From: Beggiatoa alba B18LD
Lineage (GTDB): Bacteria > Pseudomonadota > Gammaproteobacteria > Beggiatoales > Beggiatoaceae
Assembly: GCF_000245015.1 (NCBI RefSeq)
Contig: NZ_JH600070.1
Location: forward strand, 3,083,252-3,147,251
Direction of reading: 5' to 3'
DNA: 64,000 bases
Positions 1,141 through 55,534 of this stretch are shown here, in pieces (positions within the stretch are counted from its first letter, which is position 1; the number at the start of each line of letters is the position of its first letter). The translations under genes were made by a program, and so were the position numbers. The notes below the pieces were generated by a model, which saw only the letters and a program-made list of their open reading frames with translations, had not been told where the DNA came from and made no database searches.

Positions 1141-1412
1141 TTGTCTGAATCAGAATTTTCAGGATTAAACACTGTCTGAATCAGAATTCACAGAATTAAC
1201 AGAATTAGCAGAATTAAAAACAATTAAAAACATAATTTTTTATTCTTTTAATTTTCTTGTCTTTTTAATTCTGAAAATTCTGTTAATTCTGAAAATTCTG
1301 ATTCAGACAATGTTTAATTCTGCTAATTCTGATTCAGACAAAAAAAGACCTGCTAGGTTTTCAAAACCTAGCAGGTCTCTGTTTTATTTTATAAAACTCG
1401 CCGAATTCAAGT
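1141..1412. repeat. MITE-like interspersed repeat, copy 1 (core inverted relative to copy at 29415)
   Basis: The 433-base gap between the methylase and the cytochrome c' gene is mostly repeat. It contains TGTCTGAATCAG at 1141 and 1173 and its reverse complement CTGATTCAGACA ending at 1309 and 1340. Between them are alternating AATTCTG/CAGAATT words, then a near-perfect 33-bp palindrome (1346-1378) and a right end reading AAAACTCGCCGAATTCAAGT (1393-1412). That right end matches, inverted, the left end of the copies at 12459 and 29415. No matching left terminus is visible here. The central 63 bp (1208-1270) is the reverse complement of 29475-29537 with about one mismatch, while the flanking palindrome and right end keep the same orientation. 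No ORF is present, so the element is probably non-autonomous. Confidence 0.8.
1346..1378 (-). terminator. Repeat-borne hairpin, likely terminator of the cytochrome c' gene
   Basis: The arms AGACCTGCTAGGTTTT and AAAACCTAGCAGGTCT form a 16-bp perfect stem around a single base. On the minus strand the stem is followed by a run of seven T (1340-1346), the layout of an intrinsic terminator. It lies downstream of the minus-strand gene ending at 1522. The same hairpin recurs at 12590, 29569 and 47976. Confidence 0.6.
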
Positions 1413-9189: not shown

Positions 9190-10310
9190 ATGCCCGCCCC
9201 CCCCCAAAGTCGCCGAAAAAACCGCGTGACAAAAGCGAGAAAAAAAAGCCCGAACACGACCCCAGCTATAAACGCTTTTTCTCCCATCCTGAGATGGTAA
9301 AAGACCTGTTAGAAGGCTTTGTCGCAGAAGAATGGGTTAAAGAACTAGACTTTAAAACCCTAGAAAAAGTCAGCGGACAATTTACCAGCCACGACCTCCG
9401 AAGCCGTGACAACGACGTAATATGGCGAATTAACTGGCGCGACAAATGGCTATACATCTACATCCTGCTAGAATTTCAATCCAGCATCGACAAATACATG
9501 TCAGTGCGCTTCATGGTTTATATCGGCTTACTCTATCAAGACTTATTAGATGCCAAACTCATTGATGGCAAACTTCCCCCTGTATTGCCTATCGTCCTCT
9601 ACAATGGACAAGCCAGATGGAATATGCCGTTAAACGTTTCCGAATTAATAGAACCTTCAACCCTTCAAAAATATCAACCTCAACTACACTATTTACTCAT
9701 AGACGAAGGGATATATAACCCCACAGAATTATCGAACTTACACAACCTTGTCGCGGCACTCTTTCGCTTAGAAAAAGCCCAAACAGAACAAGAAGTGTCT
9801 GAAGTGATTAATTTACTCGTCACATGGCTACAAGAACCCGCACAACTAGAAATCAGAAAAGCCTTTGCGACATGGTTAGGGCGTGTTTATCTCCCGCATC
9901 ATCTCCCAGAGGCAATAGTTCCAGAACTAATAGAGTTACAGGAGATAAATGTCATGTTAGCGGAACGTGTCGCAAACTGGTATGAATCAGGCATTCAAAA
10001 AGGTTTACAACAAGGCTTACAACAAGGTGTACAACAAGGGTTACAAAAAGGGTTACAACAAGGTGTACAACAAGGGTTACAAAAAGGCTTACAACAAGGC
10101 AAACTTGAAGGACTTATTGAAGGAGAAGTAAAAGGTATCAAAACCGCCTTATTAGCCATTTTAACCATGCGCTTTGGAGAAGTTTCCCCTGAAACCAAAC
10201 AAGCTATTGATGCGATTCAAAAGCTAGAACACTTAGAACAACTAATGCATCAAGCCATTATTGTTGATTCCCTAATAACCTTCCAACAACTGCTTTTTTC
10301 TACACATTGA
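9190..10310 (+). CDS. Rpn family recombination-promoting nuclease / putative transposase, out of frame at a poly-C tract
   Basis: The in-frame part (9294-10310, 338 residues) is an Rpn-type protein (PF04754, PD-(D/E)XK fold): the core reads DNDVIWRINW...LYIYILLEFQSS, giving the family's D...E-x-Q active site, and LPPVLPIVLYNGQARW follows. The expected N-terminus HDPSYKRFFSHPEMVKDLL lies upstream in the same frame, but that frame has no start codon back to the TAA at 9159. The natural start is the ATG at 9190, with AGGA 9 bases before it. It is one base out of frame because the C-run at 9197-9205 has nine instead of ten Cs. The C-terminal third is a 12-bp repeat tract (LQQG/VQQG/LQKG units) followed by a conserved end. 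Rpn proteins are DNA endonucleases linked to RecA-independent recombination and, more recently, phage defence. The gene interrupts the alcohol-oxidation cluster. Confidence 0.85.
9197..9205 (+). repeat. Nine-C homopolymer after the Rpn start codon
   Basis: The C9 tract sits two codons after the ATG at 9190. With ten Cs the gene would read continuously as MPAPPPKSPKKPRDKSEK and on into the Rpn domain; with nine it stops at TGG-TAA near 9299. Homopolymer slippage or sequencing error could both explain it. Confidence 0.75.
9941..9956 (+). promoter_or_regulatory. Internal Shine-Dalgarno and ATG in the Rpn gene
   Basis: GGAG (9941-9944) stands 9 bases before an in-frame ATG (9954) that would give a 118-residue C-terminal protein beginning MLAERVANWYESG. 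The same GGAG-ATAAATGTC-ATG sequence starts the duplicated ORF at 10339. Known RpnS antitoxins are made from such internal starts; use of this one is inferred. Confidence 0.5.
10002..10097 (+). repeat. 12-bp coding tandem repeat, eight units
   Basis: Units of the form GG-(C/T/G)-TTACAA(C/A)AA repeat eight times in frame and encode G-L/V-Q-Q/K. The downstream duplicate at 10400-10459 has five units, so unit number has changed by whole units and kept the frame. Confidence 0.85.
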
Positions 10311-10351
10311 AGATTGCACTGCTTTTAAAAAATGGTTTGGAGATAAATGTC

Positions 10352-10675
10352 ATGTTAGCGGAACGTGTCGCAAACTGGTATGAATCAGGTGTTCAAAAAG
10401 GTTTACAACAAGGCTTACAACAAGGTGTACAACAAGGGTTACAAAAAGGATTACAAAAAGGCAAACTTGAAGGGTTTATTGAAGGGGAAGCAAAAGGTAT
10501 CAAAACCGCCTTATTAGCCATTTTAACCATGCGCTTTGGAGAAGTTTCCCCTGAAACCAAACAAGCTATTGACGCGATTCAAAAGCTAGAACACTTAGAA
10601 CAACTAATGCGTCAAGCCATCATCATTGAATCTTTACCCCTATTCCAACAATTACTTTTTCTAAAAACATATTAA
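10352..10675 (+). CDS. Free-standing copy of the Rpn C-terminal region (RpnS-like)
   Basis: From an ATG at 10352 this ORF encodes 107 residues, MLAERVANWYESGVQKG to FQQLLFLKTY, almost identical to the last third of the preceding Rpn protein but with five instead of eight 12-bp repeats and a different final 20 residues. The duplicated DNA begins at the GGAG (10339-10342) that serves the internal start in the full gene, so the copy carries its own translation signal. It lies 41 bp after the nuclease stop codon. It has no nuclease domain. By analogy with intragenic RpnS proteins, which bind and inhibit the full nuclease, it could be an antitoxin; alternatively it is a leftover from unequal recombination or a spare 3' cassette. 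A longer frame opening at a TTG at 10307 has no Shine-Dalgarno. Confidence 0.6.
   Translation: MLAERVANWYESGVQKGLQQGLQQGVQQGLQKGLQKGKLEGFIEGEAKGIKTALLAILTMRFGEVSPETKQAIDAIQKLEHLEQLMRQAIIIESLPLFQQLLFLKTY
10400..10459 (+). repeat. 12-bp coding tandem repeat, five units
   Basis: Same unit as at 10002-10097. Units one to four match the first four of the parent copy, and the fifth ends in TTACAAAAA before the shared GGCAAACTTGAA. Confidence 0.8.
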
Positions 10676-32143: not shown

Positions 32144-33088
32144 ATGTCGCGCTACATCAACCCCTACACCGATTTTGGTTTTAAAAAACTCTTTGGCGAA
32201 GAAGCGAACAAAGACTTATTAATCGACTTCTTAAACCAACTGCTCCCCGCCCACCACCAAATCCAAACCCTACAATTTAAAAATACCGAAAAACTTCCCC
32301 TCTACGCCGAAGACCGCAAAGCCTTCTTTGATGTTTACTGCACCAGTCCTAACGGCGAAAAATTCATCGTTGAAATGCAACGCGCCCGCATGGATTACTT
32401 CAAAGACCGTGCCTTGTTTTACGTCACTTTCCCCATTCAAGAACAAGCCAAAAAAGGCGTATGGAACTTTAAACTTTCTGCGGTTTACTTCATCGCTATC
32501 TTAGACTGCTTTATTGAAGAAGCGCCTGAAGCAACTGACTTTCGCCAAGATGTCAGCTTAAAAAACCAACACGGACAAATTTTCTACGACAAACTTCATT
32601 TCTGCTTTTTACAAATGCCTTTATTTAATAAACAAGCGGGGGAGTTAGAAAACCACTTTGAAAAATGGATTTACTTTTTAAAAAACCTAGCGAATTTAGA
32701 AGAGATACCGAGAATATTAAACGAACCTGTTTTTAAGAAAGCGTTTGAAATTGCGGAGCTATCGAATTTAAAACCGCGACAAGCGCAACAATATCGCCGT
32801 AGTTTAATGAATTACTGGTCAAACAATGCAGTGATAAACACCGCTTTTGAAGATGGCAAGGCAGAAGGGAAAGCCGAAGGGTTAGCGGAAGGGTTAGCTG
32901 AAGGCATCGCATTAGGGGCAACACGAGGAGAAGCCAATATATTACGCAAATTACTAGAAAAGCGTTTCGGTCAATTACCTAAACACATTCAAGAAAAATT
33001 AGCGCAAGCCTCAGCGCAACAATTGGAAGGTTGGACAGATAAACTTTTAGAAATTCAACAACTAGAAGAGCTTTTTAAACGAGAATAA
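32144..33088 (+). CDS. PD-(D/E)XK nuclease family transposase-like protein
   Basis: The 314-residue protein begins YINPYTDFGFKKLFGEEANKDLLIDFLN, the standard opening of the PDDEXK_2/Rpn-like family (PF12784). It continues with the active-site stretch AFFDVYCTSPNGEKFIVEMQRA, where D and E-x-Q are the expected catalytic residues, and YYVTFPIQEQAKKG. The tail (about 240-285) has short KAEG/LAEG repeats encoded by 12-bp units, then a conserved end KLLEKRFGQLPKHIQEKL. Members are DNA nucleases of uncertain role, often many per genome. An AGGAG lies 5 bases before the ATG. Unlike the two Rpn loci elsewhere in the window, it has no duplicated tail copy and no clear internal Shine-Dalgarno. Confidence 0.85.
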   Translation: MSRYINPYTDFGFKKLFGEEANKDLLIDFLNQLLPAHHQIQTLQFKNTEKLPLYAEDRKAFFDVYCTSPNGEKFIVEMQRARMDYFKDRALFYVTFPIQEQAKKGVWNFKLSAVYFIAILDCFIEEAPEATDFRQDVSLKNQHGQIFYDKLHFCFLQMPLFNKQAGELENHFEKWIYFLKNLANLEEIPRILNEPVFKKAFEIAELSNLKPRQAQQYRRSLMNYWSNNAVINTAFEDGKAEGKAEGLAEGLAEGIALGATRGEANILRKLLEKRFGQLPKHIQEKLAQASAQQLEGWTDKLLEIQQLEELFKRE

Positions 33089-45996: not shown

Positions 45997-46689
45997 ATGA
46001 ATACACCATTATTAGAATTACGGACAATTGATTACGCTTATCAAGCCCATCGTCCTTTATTACAAGGACTGAATTTAACAGTACATCAAGGAGAACGTTT
46101 AGCCATTCGTGGTGCGAACGGCAGTGGCAAAACGACCTTGTTACATTTAATCGTCGGACTTTGTAAACCAACACGCGGCGAGATTTTTGCATTTGGACGA
46201 TTGCGCCAAACAGAAGCCGATTTTTGGGAAGTGCGTACTCAAGCAGGTTTAGTGTTTCAAGACGCAGACGACCAACTATTTTGCCCAACGGTAGCGGAGG
46301 ATGTTGCTTTTGGATTGTTTAATCTGGGAAAGACGGCGCGAGAAGTCACACAAATCACGCGGGAAACATTGGCATTATTAGGTTTAAGTGATTATGCCGA
46401 GCGGGTAACTTATCATTTATCAGGCGGTGAAAAACGCCTTGTTGCCTTAGCGACAGTATTAGCCATGCAACCCGATATTTTATTGTTAGATGAACCGACA
46501 ACAGGGCTAGATGAGCAGGCACAAGCGCGAGTTGTGCAGATTTTGCAAGGTTTACCCCAAGCGATGTTAATTGTTTCTCATGACCGTGATTTTTTAGCGC
46601 AATTAACCCCACATCAGCGATTGTTGCAGGCGGGACAGTTAAAAAATAGTTCGTTATTACAAAAACATCCCGAAAGGAATAGCAACTAA
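45997..46689 (+). CDS. Energy-coupling factor ABC ATPase (CbiO/EcfA-like)
   Basis: A 230-residue ABC ATPase with Walker A GANGSGKTTLLH (about 39-50), Q-loop FQDADDQLFCPTVAEDVAFG (typical of CbiO), signature LSGGEKRLVALATVLAMQP, Walker B ILLLDEPTTGLD and the switch His in IVSHDRD. FQDADDQLFCPTV is a strong sign of the cobalt/nickel or vitamin type. It follows CbiQ-like by 3 bp. Its 3' end overlaps the convergent ATPase gene by 33 bp, so the two transcripts are antisense there. Confidence 0.88.
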   Translation: MNTPLLELRTIDYAYQAHRPLLQGLNLTVHQGERLAIRGANGSGKTTLLHLIVGLCKPTRGEIFAFGRLRQTEADFWEVRTQAGLVFQDADDQLFCPTVAEDVAFGLFNLGKTAREVTQITRETLALLGLSDYAERVTYHLSGGEKRLVALATVLAMQPDILLLDEPTTGLDEQAQARVVQILQGLPQAMLIVSHDRDFLAQLTPHQRLLQAGQLKNSSLLQKHPERNSN

Positions 46690-47862
46690 ATTATCACTCA
46701 GTTCAATCACCATTTCCCCATTGTAAAACACAACGCCTAAACATTTTTTATCATATCTATGATTTTGAAAATCGATAATATGTTTAAAATCCTCTTTTTT
46801 TATACTACTACTTTGTTTTACTTCAATCGCTAAAATCTCATTTTCAACTTCTATTATAAAATCAATCTCTTTTTTATCATTCGTTCTATAATGATAAATT
46901 TCGTAACTTTTTTGCAAATAAGCTAGGTGTTTTTGTAGCTCACAAAATACAAATGTTTCATATAGTTGTCCGCTATAAGGAGAGCTTAACAGTTTTTCTT
47001 GAGTATTCATTTTTAACAAACTACAAAGAATGCCTGTGTCATTAAAAAAAACTTTAGGTGATTTAATAAACTGTTTACCTATATTTGCAAAATAAGGCTT
47101 TAAAAGCGTCGCTTGATAAATTCTAGTCATGATTGAAAGATAATTATCTGTCGTTATATCTTTAATACCAATATCATTACTAAGGCTTGATTTATTTAAA
47201 ATAGTCCCGCTTCGCGTTGCTAAAATATTTACAAACTTTATAAAACTGTCAATATCTCTAATATCTGCTAAAGCTCGCGCATCTCTTTCTATATACGTTG
47301 CGATATAAGATTTAAACCAAAGTTCTTTTTGTAAGCCTTTAAGATAAAGAATTTCAGGATAACCACCATCAATAATATTTTCTATAATATCATTGTTATA
47401 GTCGCTTTTCGGTAATTTAAACTCTTTATTTAAAAGCTTTTCAATAATATTTTCGTGCGGTTTATCCTTTTTTTCTTTACAACTTAAGGGATAAAGCCTT
47501 AACTCACAAATTCTTCCTGCAAGCGTATCTTTACTTTCTTTATAATCAAGAATATTGCTACTACCGGTTAGTAAATAACGTCCATTTTTTCTGTTTTTAT
47601 CAACTTCTATTTTTATATATTCCAAAATAGTAGGAACTTTTTGTATTTCATCGAGACAGATTGGTAGCTCCAAATTTTTTAAAAATCCTTTTGGATTTTC
47701 TTTTGCGTAAAGTCTTAGCTCACCATCATCAAAAGTAAGATAATTTTTAAAGTTATTCAGTGCTAGCGTTGACTTTCCTATTTGTCTTGCACCATTCAGT
47801 AATACAACGGGAAAAGTATCAAGTGCCATTTTAAGTAGTGCTTCTAATGTTCTCTTTTTCAT
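46657..47862 (-). CDS. AAA ATPase with DUF4143 domain
   Basis: A 401-residue ATPase of the AAA_14/DUF4143 group with Walker A GARQIGKSTL (about 24-33), Walker B LPICLDEIQKVP and sensor LLTGSSNI. DUF4143 follows with the PD-(D/E)XK-like end ETFVFCELQKHL, YRTNDKKEIDFIIEVENEILAIEVKQSSS. Members are common in mobile or sporadic gene sets and are suspected in defence or toxin-antitoxin roles, without proven function. Codon use here is much more AT-rich than that of the neighbouring genes (many AAA, TTA, ATA and AGA codons), which suggests transfer. A degraded repeat element lies just upstream at 47940-48008. Confidence 0.82.
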   Translation of the reverse strand: MKKRTLEALLKMALDTFPVVLLNGARQIGKSTLALNNFKNYLTFDDGELRLYAKENPKGFLKNLELPICLDEIQKVPTILEYIKIEVDKNRKNGRYLLTGSSNILDYKESKDTLAGRICELRLYPLSCKEKKDKPHENIIEKLLNKEFKLPKSDYNNDIIENIIDGGYPEILYLKGLQKELWFKSYIATYIERDARALADIRDIDSFIKFVNILATRSGTILNKSSLSNDIGIKDITTDNYLSIMTRIYQATLLKPYFANIGKQFIKSPKVFFNDTGILCSLLKMNTQEKLLSSPYSGQLYETFVFCELQKHLAYLQKSYEIYHYRTNDKKEIDFIIEVENEILAIEVKQSSSIKKEDFKHIIDFQNHRYDKKCLGVVFYNGEMVIELSDNLVAIPFGMFL

Positions 47863-51124: not shown

Positions 51125-52246
51125 ATGAAACCACTCAATCAACTTTTTAAAACCACCCTGCTAGCTACAAGCATAACCATTATGCCTTTTTCTAGCGCAC
51201 TTTATGCCGACGAAGAAATTAGTATAGCCGTTGCAGGTCCTATCACAGGACAATACGCCACGTTCGGACACCAAATGAAAACAGGCACAGAAATAGCCGT
51301 TGAAGACCTGAATAAGGCAGGCGGCGTGCTGGGGAAAAAGTTAAAGTTAGAAGTCGGTGACGACGCATGTGACCCCAAACAAGCTGTTGCCGTTGCTAAC
51401 CAACTCGCTAACAAAAAAGTTGCATTAGTTGCTGGACATTTCTGCTCAGGTTCATCAATTCCCGCCTCCAAAGTCTATAACGAAGAAGGCGTTATCATGA
51501 TTTCCCCCGGCTCTACCAATCCCAAACTGACAGAAGAAGGCTTATCCAACGTCTTCCGTGTTTGCGGACGTGACGACCAACAAGGCGCGGTTGCGGGTGA
51601 ATATATCGCCAAAAAATACGCCGACAAAAAAGTTGCCATCCTCCACGACAAAAGCGCGTATGGTAAAGGTCTAGCCGACGAAACCAAAAAAGCCTTAAAC
51701 GCAGCGGGTAAACAAGAAGTCATGTATGAAGCCATCACCGCAGGCGAAAAAGACTACTCCGCCATTGTCTCCAAACTCAAAAAAGAACAAATTGACGTTG
51801 TCTATTTAGGGGGATACCACACCGAAGCAGGCTTAATCATCCGCCAAATGCGTGACCAAGGCATGTCCACCATTCTCGCCGCAGGCGATGCCCTCATGAC
51901 CGATGAATTCTGGTCAATTACAGGAGCAGCAGGTGAAGGTACACTCATGACATTCAGCCCAGACCCCAGCAAAAACCCCATTGCTGAACCCATTGTTGCT
52001 ACATTCCGCGCCAAAAAAATCGAGCCTGTTGGCTACATGTTATACAGCTACGGTGCTGTACAAGCATGGGCGCAAGCCGTAGAAAAAGCAGGTACAACCG
52101 ATGCGAAAAAAGTAGAAGAAGTTTTGCGCAAAGAAACCTTTAAGACTGTTTTAGGCGATGTCAGCTTTAACGCAAAAGGCGACGTTAACGCCCCTGGTTA
52201 CGTCTTCTACGTCTGGAAAAACGGCAAATATGACTACGTAGAATAA
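51125..52246 (+). CDS. Branched-chain amino acid ABC transporter substrate-binding protein (LivJ/LivK type)
   Basis: A periplasmic binding protein of 373 residues with a signal peptide (SSALYADEE). The mature start ISIAVAGPITGQYATFGHQMKTGTEIAVEDLNKAGGVLGKKLKLEVGDDACDPKQAVAVANQL is the type I fold of LivJ/LivK, with the usual disulfide partner Cys in DDACD and in GHFCSGSS. Leucine, isoleucine or valine are expected, although family members also bind amides or aromatic compounds. No permease (LivHM) or ATPase (LivGF) gene is nearby, so it is an orphan in the window. A strong terminator follows at 52266-52300. Confidence 0.9.
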   Translation: MKPLNQLFKTTLLATSITIMPFSSALYADEEISIAVAGPITGQYATFGHQMKTGTEIAVEDLNKAGGVLGKKLKLEVGDDACDPKQAVAVANQLANKKVALVAGHFCSGSSIPASKVYNEEGVIMISPGSTNPKLTEEGLSNVFRVCGRDDQQGAVAGEYIAKKYADKKVAILHDKSAYGKGLADETKKALNAAGKQEVMYEAITAGEKDYSAIVSKLKKEQIDVVYLGGYHTEAGLIIRQMRDQGMSTILAAGDALMTDEFWSITGAAGEGTLMTFSPDPSKNPIAEPIVATFRAKKIEPVGYMLYSYGAVQAWAQAVEKAGTTDAKKVEEVLRKETFKTVLGDVSFNAKGDVNAPGYVFYVWKNGKYDYVE

Positions 52247-52265
52247 TCTACAAAGCCTTACCCCT

Positions 52266-52300
52266 AAAAAATGGCTCACCTCAACACTGAGCCATTTTTA
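52266..52300 (+). terminator. Intrinsic terminator of the LivK-like gene
   Basis: AAAAATGGCTCA (52267-52278) pairs with TGAGCCATTTTT (52288-52299) around a 9-base loop. The T-rich end completes a standard terminator, usable from both sides. Confidence 0.85.
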
Positions 52301-52328
52301 TATTGACTTTCCTAATACCAAATCTCCC

Positions 52329-53372
52329 ATGAAAAGCATTCACGATAAAGGCTATAAAAGACTGTTTTCCAATAAAACTTTTTTTCGCCAACTGATAGAA
52401 ACCTTTGTTCCAGAACCATGGGTGCAAGATATTGATTTCGAGAGTTGCGAACGCCTAGAAAAAACCTTTATTACTGACCACTACAAAGAAACCGAAAGCG
52501 ACCTTATTTACAAAGTCAAATTTAAACAACAAGAAGCCTATATTTACGTTTTACTCGAATTTCAATCGACCATTGTTTGGTTTATGGCGTTGCGCGTCCT
52601 ACACTATATCTGTAGTTTCTGGCTAGACTACGCAGAAAGTCACCCCAAAAAGAAAAAACTACCGCCAATATTTCCCGTTGTACTCTACAATGGAAAAGGA
52701 AAATGGAAAAAAAGCACAGAATTGCAGGCTATTTTAGAAAAACCTGAGTTACTAGGCGTTTATACGCCCAATTTCCGCTTTTTCAAAATTGCTGAAAACG
52801 ACTACTCACCCGAACAACTCCAACAGATACAAAATTTAGTCTCTACCCTTTTTCTTGCGGAAACTCACCCACAAGATATCAAAAAACTGGCACAACAAGC
52901 TTTAATCCTCTTTGATAAAACTGACATAGAAGCCGCATCGCTATTCCTGAACTGGTTTATGCAACTGGTTGTACATGGCAAGCGAGAAATTCAGGATTAT
53001 CAAATATTAGAAACGATTTACCATGACAAACTGGAGGCAGAAATGACACTCACACAAGCAATGGATCAAGAACGTCAAATTTCGTTCAATCTCGGACGAC
53101 AAGAAGGGGAGCTAATCGGTATAGAAAAAGGGGAGTTAATTGGCATACAGAAAGGCGAGAAGATCGGTATAGAAAAAGGGGTGAAACAAGCTAAAACTGA
53201 GACTTTAACCCAGTTACTTACGCACCGCTTTAAGCCCTTAAGCGATGAACAAAAACAGCAAATTCAACAGCTCAGTATAGAACAAATCGATGCACTGATT
53301 CTTAAACTAATTCAACCCAATATTGTAACATTCGCCGATTTCTGGCAAGAAATCAGCCTTTATTTACACTAA
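52329..53372 (+). CDS. Rpn family recombination-promoting nuclease / putative transposase
   Basis: A 347-residue Rpn-type protein (PF04754). The N-terminus MKSIHDKGYKRLFSNKTFFRQLIETFVPEPW and the active-site stretch ESDLIYKVKFKQQEAYIYVLLEFQST (D...E-x-Q) are intact, as is LPPIFPVVLYNGKGKWKKS. The C-terminal third has 24-bp coding repeats (KGELIGIEKGELIGIQKG) and a conserved tail THRFKPLSDEQKQQI. Within it, an in-frame ATG at 53043 has GGAGG five bases upstream, allowing a separate 109-residue C-terminal product. Rpn proteins are DNA endonucleases, linked in E. coli to phage defence and held in check by such internal products. A copy of the C-terminal part follows as a separate ORF 15 bp after the stop. 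The short gap and terminator at 52300 leave little room for a promoter. Confidence 0.85.
   Translation: MKSIHDKGYKRLFSNKTFFRQLIETFVPEPWVQDIDFESCERLEKTFITDHYKETESDLIYKVKFKQQEAYIYVLLEFQSTIVWFMALRVLHYICSFWLDYAESHPKKKKLPPIFPVVLYNGKGKWKKSTELQAILEKPELLGVYTPNFRFFKIAENDYSPEQLQQIQNLVSTLFLAETHPQDIKKLAQQALILFDKTDIEAASLFLNWFMQLVVHGKREIQDYQILETIYHDKLEAEMTLTQAMDQERQISFNLGRQEGELIGIEKGELIGIQKGEKIGIEKGVKQAKTETLTQLLTHRFKPLSDEQKQQIQQLSIEQIDALILKLIQPNIVTFADFWQEISLYLH
53033..53045 (+). promoter_or_regulatory. Internal Shine-Dalgarno and ATG in the second Rpn gene
   Basis: GGAGG (53033-53037) stands five bases before an in-frame ATG (53043), near optimal. The product would be a 109-residue protein starting MTLTQAMDQERQISF. 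The duplicated ORF begins with the same ATG and a slightly changed signal (AGAGG, 53378-53382). Confidence 0.6.
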
Positions 53373-53387
53373 AAACTAGAGGCAGAA

Positions 53388-53708
53388 ATGACACTCACAC
53401 AAGCAATGGATCAAGAACGTCAAATTTCGTTCAATCTCGGACGACAAGAAGGGGAGTTAATTGGTATAGAAAAAGGGGAGCTAATTGGCATACAGAAAGG
53501 CGAGAAGATCGGTATAGAAAAAGGGGTGAAACAAGCTAAAACTGAGACTTTAACCCAGTTACTTACGCACCGCTTTGAACCCTTAAGCGATGAACAAAAA
53601 CAACAAATTTCTAAATTCAGTATTGAACAACTAGACACACTACTTTTAAAACTCCTTCAACCTAATATCACAACCCTTGCCGACTTCTGGCGAGAAATAA
53701 CCCCCTAA
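53388..53708 (+). CDS. Free-standing copy of the second Rpn C-terminal region (RpnS-like)
   Basis: The 106-residue ORF begins MTLTQAMDQERQISFNLGRQEG and is near-identical to the C-terminal part of the preceding nuclease up to about residue 75. It then diverges (ISKFSIEQLDTLLLKLLQPNITTLADFWREITP against IQQLSIEQIDALILKLIQPNIV in the parent). It has its own AGAGG Shine-Dalgarno at 53378-53382, the same position as the internal signal of the parent. It starts 15 bp after the parent stop, so it would be cotranscribed. The duplicated unit starts at the internal translation start, as in the first Rpn locus. An antitoxin role by analogy with RpnS, or a recombination cassette for swapping tails, are the two readings. 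Confidence 0.6.
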   Translation: MTLTQAMDQERQISFNLGRQEGELIGIEKGELIGIQKGEKIGIEKGVKQAKTETLTQLLTHRFEPLSDEQKQQISKFSIEQLDTLLLKLLQPNITTLADFWREITP

Positions 53709-53761
53709 TATCCATTAACATTGCAATAACCCATAAAAATATATAAAGGTAATAACCAGTT

Positions 53762-55534
53762 ATGTGTGGCATCTGTGGCGAATTACGTTTCGATAATACC
53801 TCCCCGCAACTCGACAATCTCAAACGCATGACAAGCGTACTCGCTCGACGTGGCCCTGACAGTGAAGGCTACTACCAAACTGATACCGTTGCCTTTGGAC
53901 ACCGTCGCCTATCCGTTATCGACCTCTCCGAACGAGGCACACAGCCAATGGTCGACAACCAACATAATTTAATCCTTGTTTTCAACGGCACGATTTACAA
54001 CTATCGAGAACTACGCCACGAACTTATCGAAAAAGGCTACCAATTCCAATCAGAAACTGACACCGAAGTCATCCTAAAAGCCTATGCAGAATGGGGCGAT
54101 ACCTGCGTAAACTACCTACAAGGCATGTTCGCCTTCGCCATCTGGGACAAAACCCAACAACGCTTATTTCTCGCCCGCGACCGCGTTGGCATCAAACCCC
54201 TCTACTACGTCAAAACCCCCGAATTTATCCGCTTTGCCTCCACCATGCCCGCCCTGCTCGCAACAGACGGCATCAACAAACAAATAGACCCCATTGGCTT
54301 ACACCACCACCTAACCCTACACGCCGTTATCCCCGCGCCCTACACCATCCTACAAGGCATTCGCAAAGTAGAACCCGCGACAAGCCTAAGCATCAACAAA
54401 CAAGGCGACATACAACGGCGCGTTTACTGGCAACTCAACGCCACCCGACCCGCAGAAACCTACAGCGAACAAGACTGGATAGAACTCACCCACACCGCCC
54501 TAAAAAACGCCGTCAGCAGTCACCGCTCCGTTGCCGATGTCCCCGTTGGCGTACTCCTCTCAGGCGGATTAGACTCAAGCCTACTCGTTGGACTGCTTGC
54601 CGAACACTACGACGCACACAACCTGCTGACTTTCTCCGTTGGCTTTGAAGATGCCCCCGAAGAAAAAGGCAGCGAATTCGAATACTCAGACCAAATTGTC
54701 GCCCGCTACAAAACCCGCCACCACCGCTACACCATACCCAACGCCCAAGTTCTACAACGCCTCCCCGAAGCCATCCAAAACATGGCAGAACCAATGGTCG
54801 GACAAGATGCTGTTGCCTTCTACCTACTTGCCGAACAAGTGTCACAAACCGTAAAAGTCGTTCAAAGCGGACAAGGTGCGGATGAAGTCTTTGGCGGATA
54901 CTTCTGGTATCCCCTCATGAACGCCGCAACAGGCAACGACTTAGACCGCTTTCGCCCCTACTACTTTGACCGCACCCACAACGAATTTTTAGAAACCGTA
55001 CACCCCGACTACCACGGCGAAGACTACACCGCGCAAACCATCGCCAACCTTCTTGCCCAAGACAACGCCAGCGAATTCCTAGACAAAGTGCTACGCATGG
55101 ATGTCACCACCTTAATTGTTGACGACCCCGTTAAACGGGTTGATAACATGACAATGGCGTGGGGATTAGAAGCCCGTGTCCCTTTCCTAGACCAACAATT
55201 GCTTGAAACCGCTGCCAGAATGCCACCCAGCTTAAAAATGCGCGAAAATGGCAAATATCCCCTAAAAGCCATCGCCCGCAAACTCCTCCCTGCCAGCGTC
55301 ATCGACCGCCCAAAAGGCTACTTTCCTGTCCCTGCTTTAAAATACGTCCGTGGTGAATTTTTAACCTTTATGCGAGAAGTCCTACAATCCGACACCTGTC
55401 GACAACGCCAACTATTTAACCGCACCTATGTCGACAAACTCCTTGCTAATCCAGAAGCTTACATGACCCCGCTACAAGGCAGTAAACTATGGCATTTAGC
55501 CCTTTTAGAATCTTGGTTACAAACCCATCTTTAA
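53762..55534 (+). CDS. Asparagine synthase-type amidotransferase, probably N-acetylglutaminylglutamine amidotransferase
   Basis: A glutamine-dependent amidotransferase of 590 residues. The N-terminal Ntn domain starts with the nucleophile Cys2 (MCGICGE), and the synthase domain has the PP-loop VLLSGGLDSSLL (about 262-273). The synthetase part, with MVGQDAVAFYLLAEQVSQTVKVVQSGQGADEVFGGYFWYP, resembles the branch that makes the osmolyte N-acetylglutaminylglutamine amide more than classical AsnB, and the length fits. That branch normally sits beside a ligase/GNAT gene, which is not here, so the assignment is tentative. The codon use is richer in C-ending codons than the neighbours, leaving long antisense and offset frames. 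A terminator follows at 55584-55622. Confidence 0.8.
   Translation: MCGICGELRFDNTSPQLDNLKRMTSVLARRGPDSEGYYQTDTVAFGHRRLSVIDLSERGTQPMVDNQHNLILVFNGTIYNYRELRHELIEKGYQFQSETDTEVILKAYAEWGDTCVNYLQGMFAFAIWDKTQQRLFLARDRVGIKPLYYVKTPEFIRFASTMPALLATDGINKQIDPIGLHHHLTLHAVIPAPYTILQGIRKVEPATSLSINKQGDIQRRVYWQLNATRPAETYSEQDWIELTHTALKNAVSSHRSVADVPVGVLLSGGLDSSLLVGLLAEHYDAHNLLTFSVGFEDAPEEKGSEFEYSDQIVARYKTRHHRYTIPNAQVLQRLPEAIQNMAEPMVGQDAVAFYLLAEQVSQTVKVVQSGQGADEVFGGYFWYPLMNAATGNDLDRFRPYYFDRTHNEFLETVHPDYHGEDYTAQTIANLLAQDNASEFLDKVLRMDVTTLIVDDPVKRVDNMTMAWGLEARVPFLDQQLLETAARMPPSLKMRENGKYPLKAIARKLLPASVIDRPKGYFPVPALKYVRGEFLTFMREVLQSDTCRQRQLFNRTYVDKLLANPEAYMTPLQGSKLWHLALLESWLQTHL

What the first reader, a model, noticed from the sequence alone, without database searches (positions are those of the whole stretch)
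52329..53708. Second, unrelated-sequence Rpn locus shows the same tail duplication at the same functional boundary
This Rpn gene has a different tail, yet it too has a near-optimal internal start (GGAGG, 5 bases, ATG 53043). The duplicate (53388-53708) begins at that same translation start, 15 bp after the parent stop. Two independent events sharing a boundary at an internal ribosome-binding site are unlikely by chance and argue for selection. In both loci the shared part is near-identical and the last 20-30 residues diverge, so the free protein could neutralise a different partner or diversify the tail.
Basis: partly seen in the sequence, partly recalled or inferred. Interest (0 to 1): 0.86.

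Follow-up and report, generated by a model that had tools for sequence, protein, structure and literature searches.

The report
Free-standing antitoxin copy beside Rpn toxin
A bacterial DNA-cutting toxin gene is followed by a second, separate copy of its own built-in antitoxin; this is an already described kind of arrangement, seen here in another bacterium, and it may allow the toxin to swap its tail.

Summary
Confirmed: Rpn gene 52329-53372 is followed, 15 bp after its stop, by ORF 53388-53708 (106 aa), a copy of its C-terminal tail. DNA identity starts at 53028 = 53373, five bases before the internal Shine-Dalgarno. The copy is identical through the repeat helix (60/60 residues) and diverges at the end (20/32). 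Best explanation: a free-standing RpnS antitoxin gene, a kind already described in E. coli (ypaA beside rpnE; PMC10327210). The internal start is family-wide (136 of 142 genes fetched here; control stretch 4 of 142). In 9 of 18 tail-copy events homology starts within 20 bp upstream of that start, more than chance; the other nine start 39-257 bp upstream. A fossil in the same genome and gene order in the sister species suggest the copy is the rest of a second full rpn gene rather than a tail-only duplication. Synonymous divergence jumps from 0.14 to 0.64 along the copy, which points to gene conversion. In E. coli, about 42% of genomes with rpnE show no parent-type end, as recombination between the two tails would leave it; three such loci were read. 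New member of a known kind.

The parts
52329..53372 (+). Parent rpn gene (RpnL): PD-(D/E)XK nuclease, PF04754, 347 aa
   Evidence: Pfam PF04754 E 3.2e-29, residues 5-198. D6, D58, E77, Q79, R89 match in spacing the RpnA residues D11, D63, E82, Q84, R94 tested in PMC5350276.
52500..52595 (+). Stretch with the codons of the conserved residues D58, E77, Q79, R89
   Evidence: Alignment A1: D58 and E77 invariant in 14 Rpn domains, Q79 and R89 at 90% or more; all four invariant in A2, 9 sequences.
53033..53045 (+). Internal Shine-Dalgarno GGAGG, 5-base spacer and ATG of the intragenic RpnS
   Evidence: Sequence. An SD plus ATG/GTG in this part in 136 of 142 distinct Rpn genes, against 4 of 142 in a control stretch of the nuclease domain.
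53043..53372 (+). Intragenic RpnS ORF of the parent (109 aa)
   Evidence: DUF4351 at parent residues 282-327.
53028..53372 (+). First unit of the 345-bp direct repeat
   Evidence: aligned part 53028-53353.
53373..53698 (+). Second unit of the direct repeat; starts at the first base after the parent stop codon
   Evidence: 89.9% identity over 326 bp.
53378..53390 (+). Shine-Dalgarno AGAGG, 5-base spacer and ATG of the copy
53388..53708 (+). Free-standing RpnS-type ORF, 106 aa, DUF4351
   Evidence: DUF4351 E 1.6e-7, 31.7 bits against cut-off 25. AlphaFold2 model: helix 3-63 and three short helices, mean pLDDT 89, pTM 0.59.
53439..53540 (+). Four-residue repeat helix of the copy (approximate limits; counterpart in the parent 53094-53195)
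   Evidence: Length from start to the RF motif 60 in both, 60/60 identical.
53610..53708 (+). Diverged C-terminal end of the copy
   Evidence: 20/32 residues identical; pS 0.64 against 0.14 in the N part, Fisher p 4.5e-5 on rounded counts.
9294..10675 (+). Locus 1: another rpn plus tail copy with the same anatomy (copy ATG 10355, identity from 10339)

Best explanation
The copy at 53388-53708 is a free-standing RpnS-type antitoxin gene, 15 bp behind and in the same direction as an Rpn toxin gene that carries the same antitoxin inside it. Most likely history (inferred): two full rpn genes lay side by side; the downstream one lost its nuclease part, and the loss stopped where the internal ribosome-binding site had to be kept. 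The RpnS part then stayed near-identical to the parent's by DNA-level gene conversion, while the last 30 or so residues kept an older divergence (the jump in synonymous divergence is shown, the process is inferred). Likely action (inferred): the extra RpnS pairs helix to helix with the parent's RpnL or RpnS and holds the nuclease in check, adding antitoxin dose. At this locus the four-residue repeat number is the same in both, so the copy should be cognate, judging by the E. coli RpnC repeat experiment in PMC10327210. As a side effect the direct repeats allow recombination that would give the toxin the copy's C-end while it keeps a matching internal antitoxin; E. coli rpnE genomes show a pattern that fits this.
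For: PF04754 and DUF4351 matches. Catalytic residues conserved. Internal start in 136 of 142 Rpn genes, control 4 of 142. E. coli rpnE/ypaA has the same anatomy: homology from 14 bp upstream of the ATG, copy start 12 bp after the stop, N part 30/31, last part 6/11; RpnES from ypaA was detected as a protein (PMC10327210). Boundary statistics: 9 of 18 events within 20 bp. 20 of 21 copies end within four residues of the parent's end; pooled pN/pS 0.030/0.216 in the N part and 0.088/0.272 in the C part. Fossil in the same genome: the downstream tail in L005 is preceded by a 49-bp match to the nuclease domain and resumes near position 660 of the paralogue L004. In the sister species G005 an intact rpn (L029) follows the orthologue of the livJ-like gene and another intact rpn (L025) precedes the orthologue of asnB, the two neighbours of this locus.
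Against: No expression or activity data and no antitoxin test of this protein. Foldseek gave no match for the copy's model at E 0.001 or better and did not list 7TH0. The G005 arrangement could itself be derived, and gene order between the two species is scrambled there, so the direction of change is not proven. Repeat number is not kept equal in other parent-copy pairs (equal in 1 of 21), which speaks against a general backup role. The jump in synonymous divergence is not general: the C part is higher in 11 of 21 pairs. Tail copies are frequent in G000 and G005 but few elsewhere.
Confidence: 0.62

Rival explanations
1. Tail-switch cassette: the copy's main role is as a donor. Recombination in the near-identical part deletes the parent's own end and fuses the toxin to the copy's end, changing specificity while the internal antitoxin changes with it.
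For: E. coli: rpnE nuclease domain found in 5371 of 5426 genomes, ypaA-type end in 5363, parent-type end in 3101. The 3 single-tail records read (L199, L206, L210, of 12 fetched) carry rpnE 5' context with the ypaA-type end. L021 shows recombinant ends in two tandem copies. [quoted passage not shown]
Against: No strain-level data for the window species. Switching is a foreseeable by-product of direct repeats and need not be selected. The E. coli 42% is inferred from absence of the parent-type end in a search of 65 bases; a strongly diverged parent end would be missed.
Confidence: 0.3
2. Non-cognate antitoxin: the free copy neutralises other Rpn proteins (paralogues or those of incoming elements) rather than its parent.
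For: Helix length differs from the parent's by a non-zero multiple of four residues in 20 of 21 pairs and in 10 of 10 E. coli two-tail records, 7 distinct pairs. One extra repeat stopped RpnCS from countering RpnCLS (PMC10327210).
Against: This locus is the one pair with equal length. Shuffling lengths among pairs gives 0.52 equal pairs on average, so mismatch is not more than chance and is no sign of selection for mismatch.
Confidence: 0.15
3. Decaying remnant of a tandem duplication without function.
For: Full tandem rpn genes, head-only scraps and tail-only copies all occur, as expected from random duplication and loss. Broken tails exist too: two in L095 and a third partial one in L009.
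Against: 20 of 21 tabulated tail copies are open and end within four residues of the parent's end (the table required the internal start). Pooled pN/pS is 0.14 in the N part and 0.32 in the C part. The two copies upstream of L010 stay open at pS 0.64-0.77.
Confidence: 0.15

Closest known systems
E. coli ypaA (RpnES) downstream of rpnE; RpnCS downstream of rpnC in some strains (Zhong et al. 2023, PMC10327210)
   Same: Separate gene for the RpnS tail just behind its parent; for rpnE/ypaA also the boundary at the internal SD, near-identical first part and diverged end. rpnC was not looked at here.
   Different: Here the tail has a DUF4351 end and equal repeat number; E. coli K-12 ypaA has one more repeat than its parent. 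Expression was shown for RpnES, not here.
Intragenic RpnS / RpnL toxin-antitoxin (PMC10327210; nuclease work in PMC5350276)
   Same: Nuclease with conserved catalytic residues, internal SD and ATG, four-residue repeats in the first helix.
   Different: An additional antitoxin ORF outside the toxin gene.
Orphan toxin/immunity tails of Rhs and CdiA loci (recalled, no call)
   Same: Displaced 3' ends behind a parent gene that can be recombined into it.
   Different: Those tails encode the toxin domain with a separate immunity gene; here the tail is itself the antitoxin and the toxin acts inside the cell. It may work somewhat like it; it is not a member.

Membership tests
Rpn nuclease (PF04754, YhgA-like) | Pfam PF04754 over its gathering score | tested here: met
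   102.4 bits against 21
Rpn nuclease (PF04754, YhgA-like) | NCBIfam TIGR01784 over its cut-off | tested here: not met
   45 bits against 52.1; a family match, but below the curated cut-off
Rpn nuclease (PF04754, YhgA-like) | Catalytic D, D, E, Q, R as in RpnA | tested here: met
   D6, D58, E77, Q79, R89 with the same spacing as D11, D63, E82, Q84, R94
Rpn nuclease (PF04754, YhgA-like) | DNA cleavage and toxicity | not testable with these tools
   -
Intragenic RpnS | Internal SD and start codon near residue 240 | tested here: met
   GGAGG-5-ATG at 53043; 136 of 142 genes, control 4 of 142
Free-standing RpnS (ypaA/RpnES kind) | Separate ORF homologous to the tail of the adjacent Rpn, with its own SD | tested here: met
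Free-standing RpnS (ypaA/RpnES kind) | DUF4351 (annotation that the paper names for some species) | tested here: met
   31.7 bits against 25
Free-standing RpnS (ypaA/RpnES kind) | Four-residue repeats in the first helix | tested here: met
   helix 3-63 in the model
Free-standing RpnS (ypaA/RpnES kind) | Fold of RpnAS (PDB 7TH0) | tested here: inconclusive
   Long first helix and three short helices, but no Foldseek match at E 0.001 or better, and 7TH0 is not among the 4 sequences listed
Free-standing RpnS (ypaA/RpnES kind) | Protein made in cells; neutralises RpnL | not testable with these tools
   -
Known anti-phage defence models (PADLOC) | Match to a model | tested here: not met
   0 families for parent and copy at E 0.01

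The most novel reading that the evidence does not exclude
Rpn loci carry a spare, separately translated tail that serves two ends at once: antitoxin dose now, and a donor for one-step tail switching later. Because the antitoxin lies inside the toxin gene, a switch changes toxin and antitoxin together and never leaves the toxin without a partner. Concerted evolution of the helix part keeps the switch possible, while the ends stay diverged and so make the switch worth something.
Probability: 0.3. Interest if true: 0.72.

Novelty: new member of a known kind. Interest (0 to 1): 0.48.

Why it matters
The rpn-plus-free-tail arrangement known from E. coli is found here in distant bacteria, often with the same boundary and the same pattern of identity. 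That makes two things testable: how a gene-within-a-gene antitoxin becomes a separate gene, and whether toxin tails are switched by recombination without breaking the toxin-antitoxin pairing.

Tried and rejected
Considered and set aside. (1) Simple tail-only tandem duplication: possible for this locus, but it does not explain the nuclease scrap in L005 or the two intact rpn genes at the matching neighbours in G005. (2) Protein-level selection alone for the identical helix: rejected for this locus, since synonymous sites show the jump too. The jump is not general: the C part has higher pS than the N part in 11 of 21 pairs. (3) Selection for repeat mismatch: not supported, shuffled pairs are equal just as rarely. 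(4) A sigma-70-like promoter or an intrinsic terminator between parent and copy: none found on the plus strand of 52200-53850 by a consensus scan, which does not cover other promoter types. (5) Fold search against the PDB: no useful match.

Rows dropped or adjusted; of the 79 matches, one (G038:C42) had no fetched locus, and six outside G000 and G005 could not be tested (no downstream sequence or a fragment under 60 aa). Weak repeat-only hits in L082 and L084, a weak hit in L063, the scrambled L141 and L147, two truncated copies in L095 and a third partial copy in L009 are not in the table of 21. In one search I collapsed 21 copies to 18 events by hand (the pairs in L021, L023 and L095 counted once) and entered 48 bp for L073, where one search gave 13 because of a 3-bp gap; L187 is cut by a contig end. 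In some searches the parent helix of L202 and L204 was counted by hand. The E. coli records were 12 chosen from 40 listed, plus MG1655.

Full report
What is there. The window holds an Rpn gene at 52329-53372 (347 aa; PF04754) whose tail is repeated as a separate ORF at 53388-53708 (106 aa; DUF4351). DNA identity begins at 53028 and 53373, that is at the first base after the parent stop and five bases before the Shine-Dalgarno core. The parent keeps the residues tested in E. coli RpnA: D11, D63, E82, Q84, R94 there, D6, D58, E77, Q79, R89 here, with equal spacing (of PMC5350276 I saw passages). The parent is therefore predicted to be an active nuclease; this was not tested.

Already known. PMC10327210 (Zhong et al. 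2023, preprint; I read parts 1 to 3 of 4) reports that RpnS, made from an internal start, blocks RpnL, that RpnS can also be a separate gene (annotated DUF4351 in some species), and that ypaA downstream of rpnE and a second RpnCS downstream of rpnC are such genes with separate origins. The finding is thus of a published kind. In the listings (20 of 386 shown; 40 of 533 shown; 7 of 7) I saw no other paper whose title or abstract treats such copies; the library holds open-licence papers only.

The internal start is general. Among 142 distinct closed Rpn genes of 270-420 aa fetched here, 136 have an SD plus ATG/GTG at residues 222-262 from the start of the domain match; 4 of 142 do in a control stretch at residues 100-140.

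How common are tail copies. In the two genomes of the genus, 5 of 11 PF04754 genes of G000 (L002, L005, L009, L010, L011; for L010 the copies lie upstream) and 5 of 12 of G005 (L019, L021, L023, L027, L028) have at least one tail-only copy beside them. L027 is a disordered case: its copy lies about 1.1 kb downstream, after rpn scraps, and runs on 18 residues past the parent's end. In the other family genomes 2 of 55 matches do (L070, L073); six of the 55 could not be tested. In the wide set of 94 genes, in which E. coli rpnE was chosen on purpose, 5 do (L079, L095, L109, L118, L187). Full tandem genes (for example L007/L008) and head-only scraps (for example L037, L094) also occur.

Boundaries. 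Counting one event per leader, 9 of 18 events have the 5' boundary of homology within 20 bp upstream of the internal ATG; the other nine lie 39-257 bp upstream. Uniform breakpoints over 720 bp would give this with P about 4e-10, over a 120-bp linker about 1e-3. The events are not fully independent, as paralogues of one genome are among them. The table was built from copies that have the internal start, so breaks inside the RpnS ORF are under-counted; three such broken tails were seen (two in L095, one in L009). The copies of L021 have lost the GGAG of the SD, and the copy of L118, whose homology begins at the ATG, seems to take its SD from the end of the parent gene.

Origin. In L005 of the same genome the downstream tail is preceded by a 49-bp match to the nuclease domain and resumes near position 660 of the paralogue L004, so that tail looks like what is left of a fuller second copy. 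In G005 an intact rpn (L029) follows the orthologue of the livJ-like gene (88% identical protein) and another intact rpn (L025) precedes the orthologue of asnB (87%), the same neighbours that flank rpn plus tail here. The parent's nuclease domain matches both at 77% of residues (184/238 and 183/238), the tail at 42-43%, and blastn identity stops 35 bp past the internal ATG. I read the copy as the positional counterpart of the 3' end of a full rpn. Gene order around it is otherwise scrambled between the two species, so the reverse direction is not excluded.

Evolution of the copy. Synonymous differences per site are 0.14 in the N part and 0.64 in the C part at this locus (Fisher p 4.5e-5 on rounded counts), 0.12 and 0.43 at locus 1 (p 0.016), 0.12 and 0.77 at E. 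coli rpnE/ypaA (p 1.7e-4). A jump at silent sites points to DNA-level homogenisation. It is not seen in every pair: pS is higher in the C part in 11 of 21. Protein identity of the N helix exceeds that of the C-end in 18 of 21 pairs, is lower in one and equal in two. Low pooled pN/pS (0.030/0.216 and 0.088/0.272) and ends within four residues of the parent's in 20 of 21 copies (lengths) suggest that copies are kept as proteins.

Repeat register. The paper reports that one added repeat stops RpnCS from countering RpnCLS. Helix length from the internal start, measured to a motif chosen per family, differs between parent and copy in 20 of 21 pairs, each time by a multiple of four; this locus is the exception. 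In E. coli, 10 of 10 two-tail records (7 distinct pairs) differ too. Shuffled pairs are equal just as rarely (0.52 expected, 1 seen), so the register is simply not kept, and mismatch is no sign of selection.

Tail switching. Of 5426 E. coli genomes, 5371 have the rpnE nuclease domain, 5363 the ypaA-type end and 3101 the parent-type end. About 2260 therefore seem to lack the parent-type end, and few lack the other. Of 12 records fetched, nine have two tails and three one; the three carry rpnE's own 5' context joined to the ypaA-type end, which is what recombination between the two repeats would leave. The ends are so diverged (pS 0.77) that the two-tail state should be older than these strains; this is inference, and no tree was made. 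For this locus the same outcome is a prediction.

Verdict. A free-standing RpnS-type antitoxin gene, new member of a known kind.

Noticed in passing
window 9190-9294 (locus 1): The upstream ATG at 9190 is out of frame with the rpn ORF that starts at 9294; a run of nine C (9197-9205) lies between (read). The ORF from 9294 lacks the region of the first conserved aspartate. Phase variation or a sequencing error are both possible.
   Followed up: no
L005 (G000:C2:2799813-2803403): The rpn frame ends after residue 201, while both its own tail and a downstream tail copy remain open; a nuclease-domain scrap precedes the second tail.
   Followed up: partly
L010 (G000:C2:1494831-1498427), 813-1091 and 1133-1459: Two tail-only copies lie upstream of a full rpn gene, open at pS 0.64-0.77.
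   Followed up: partly
L095 (class genome G176): An rpn gene flanked on both sides by tail copies, some fused to a new N-terminal stretch.
   Followed up: partly
L007/L008 (G000): Two full rpn genes in tandem, the stop codon directly followed by the next ATG; they too diverge most in about the last 30 residues.
   Followed up: partly
window 46657-47862, minus strand: ATPase-like protein with a strong match to PADLOC PDC-S01 (E 3.5e-123), a candidate defence protein.
   Followed up: no
window 32144-33088: Third Rpn-type gene (TIGR01784, 85 bits, over cut-off); no tail ORF follows it in the list, and a convergent ORF ends 5 bp past its stop.
   Followed up: no
window 1259-1308 and elsewhere in G000: A dispersed repeat of about 50 bp: 47 of the 57 matches listed fall on one 80-bp stretch of the query (only 40 of 435 candidates were scored).
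   Followed up: no
L016 (G000:C2:1893402-1896563): A lone 77-residue DUF4351 ORF; no Rpn gene seen in the roughly 1.4 kb upstream that was translated.
   Followed up: no
window 53388-53705 and 10355-10672: The repeat helix gives matches to FliH profiles, far below their cut-offs, as might be expected of GxxxG-like repeats.
   Followed up: no
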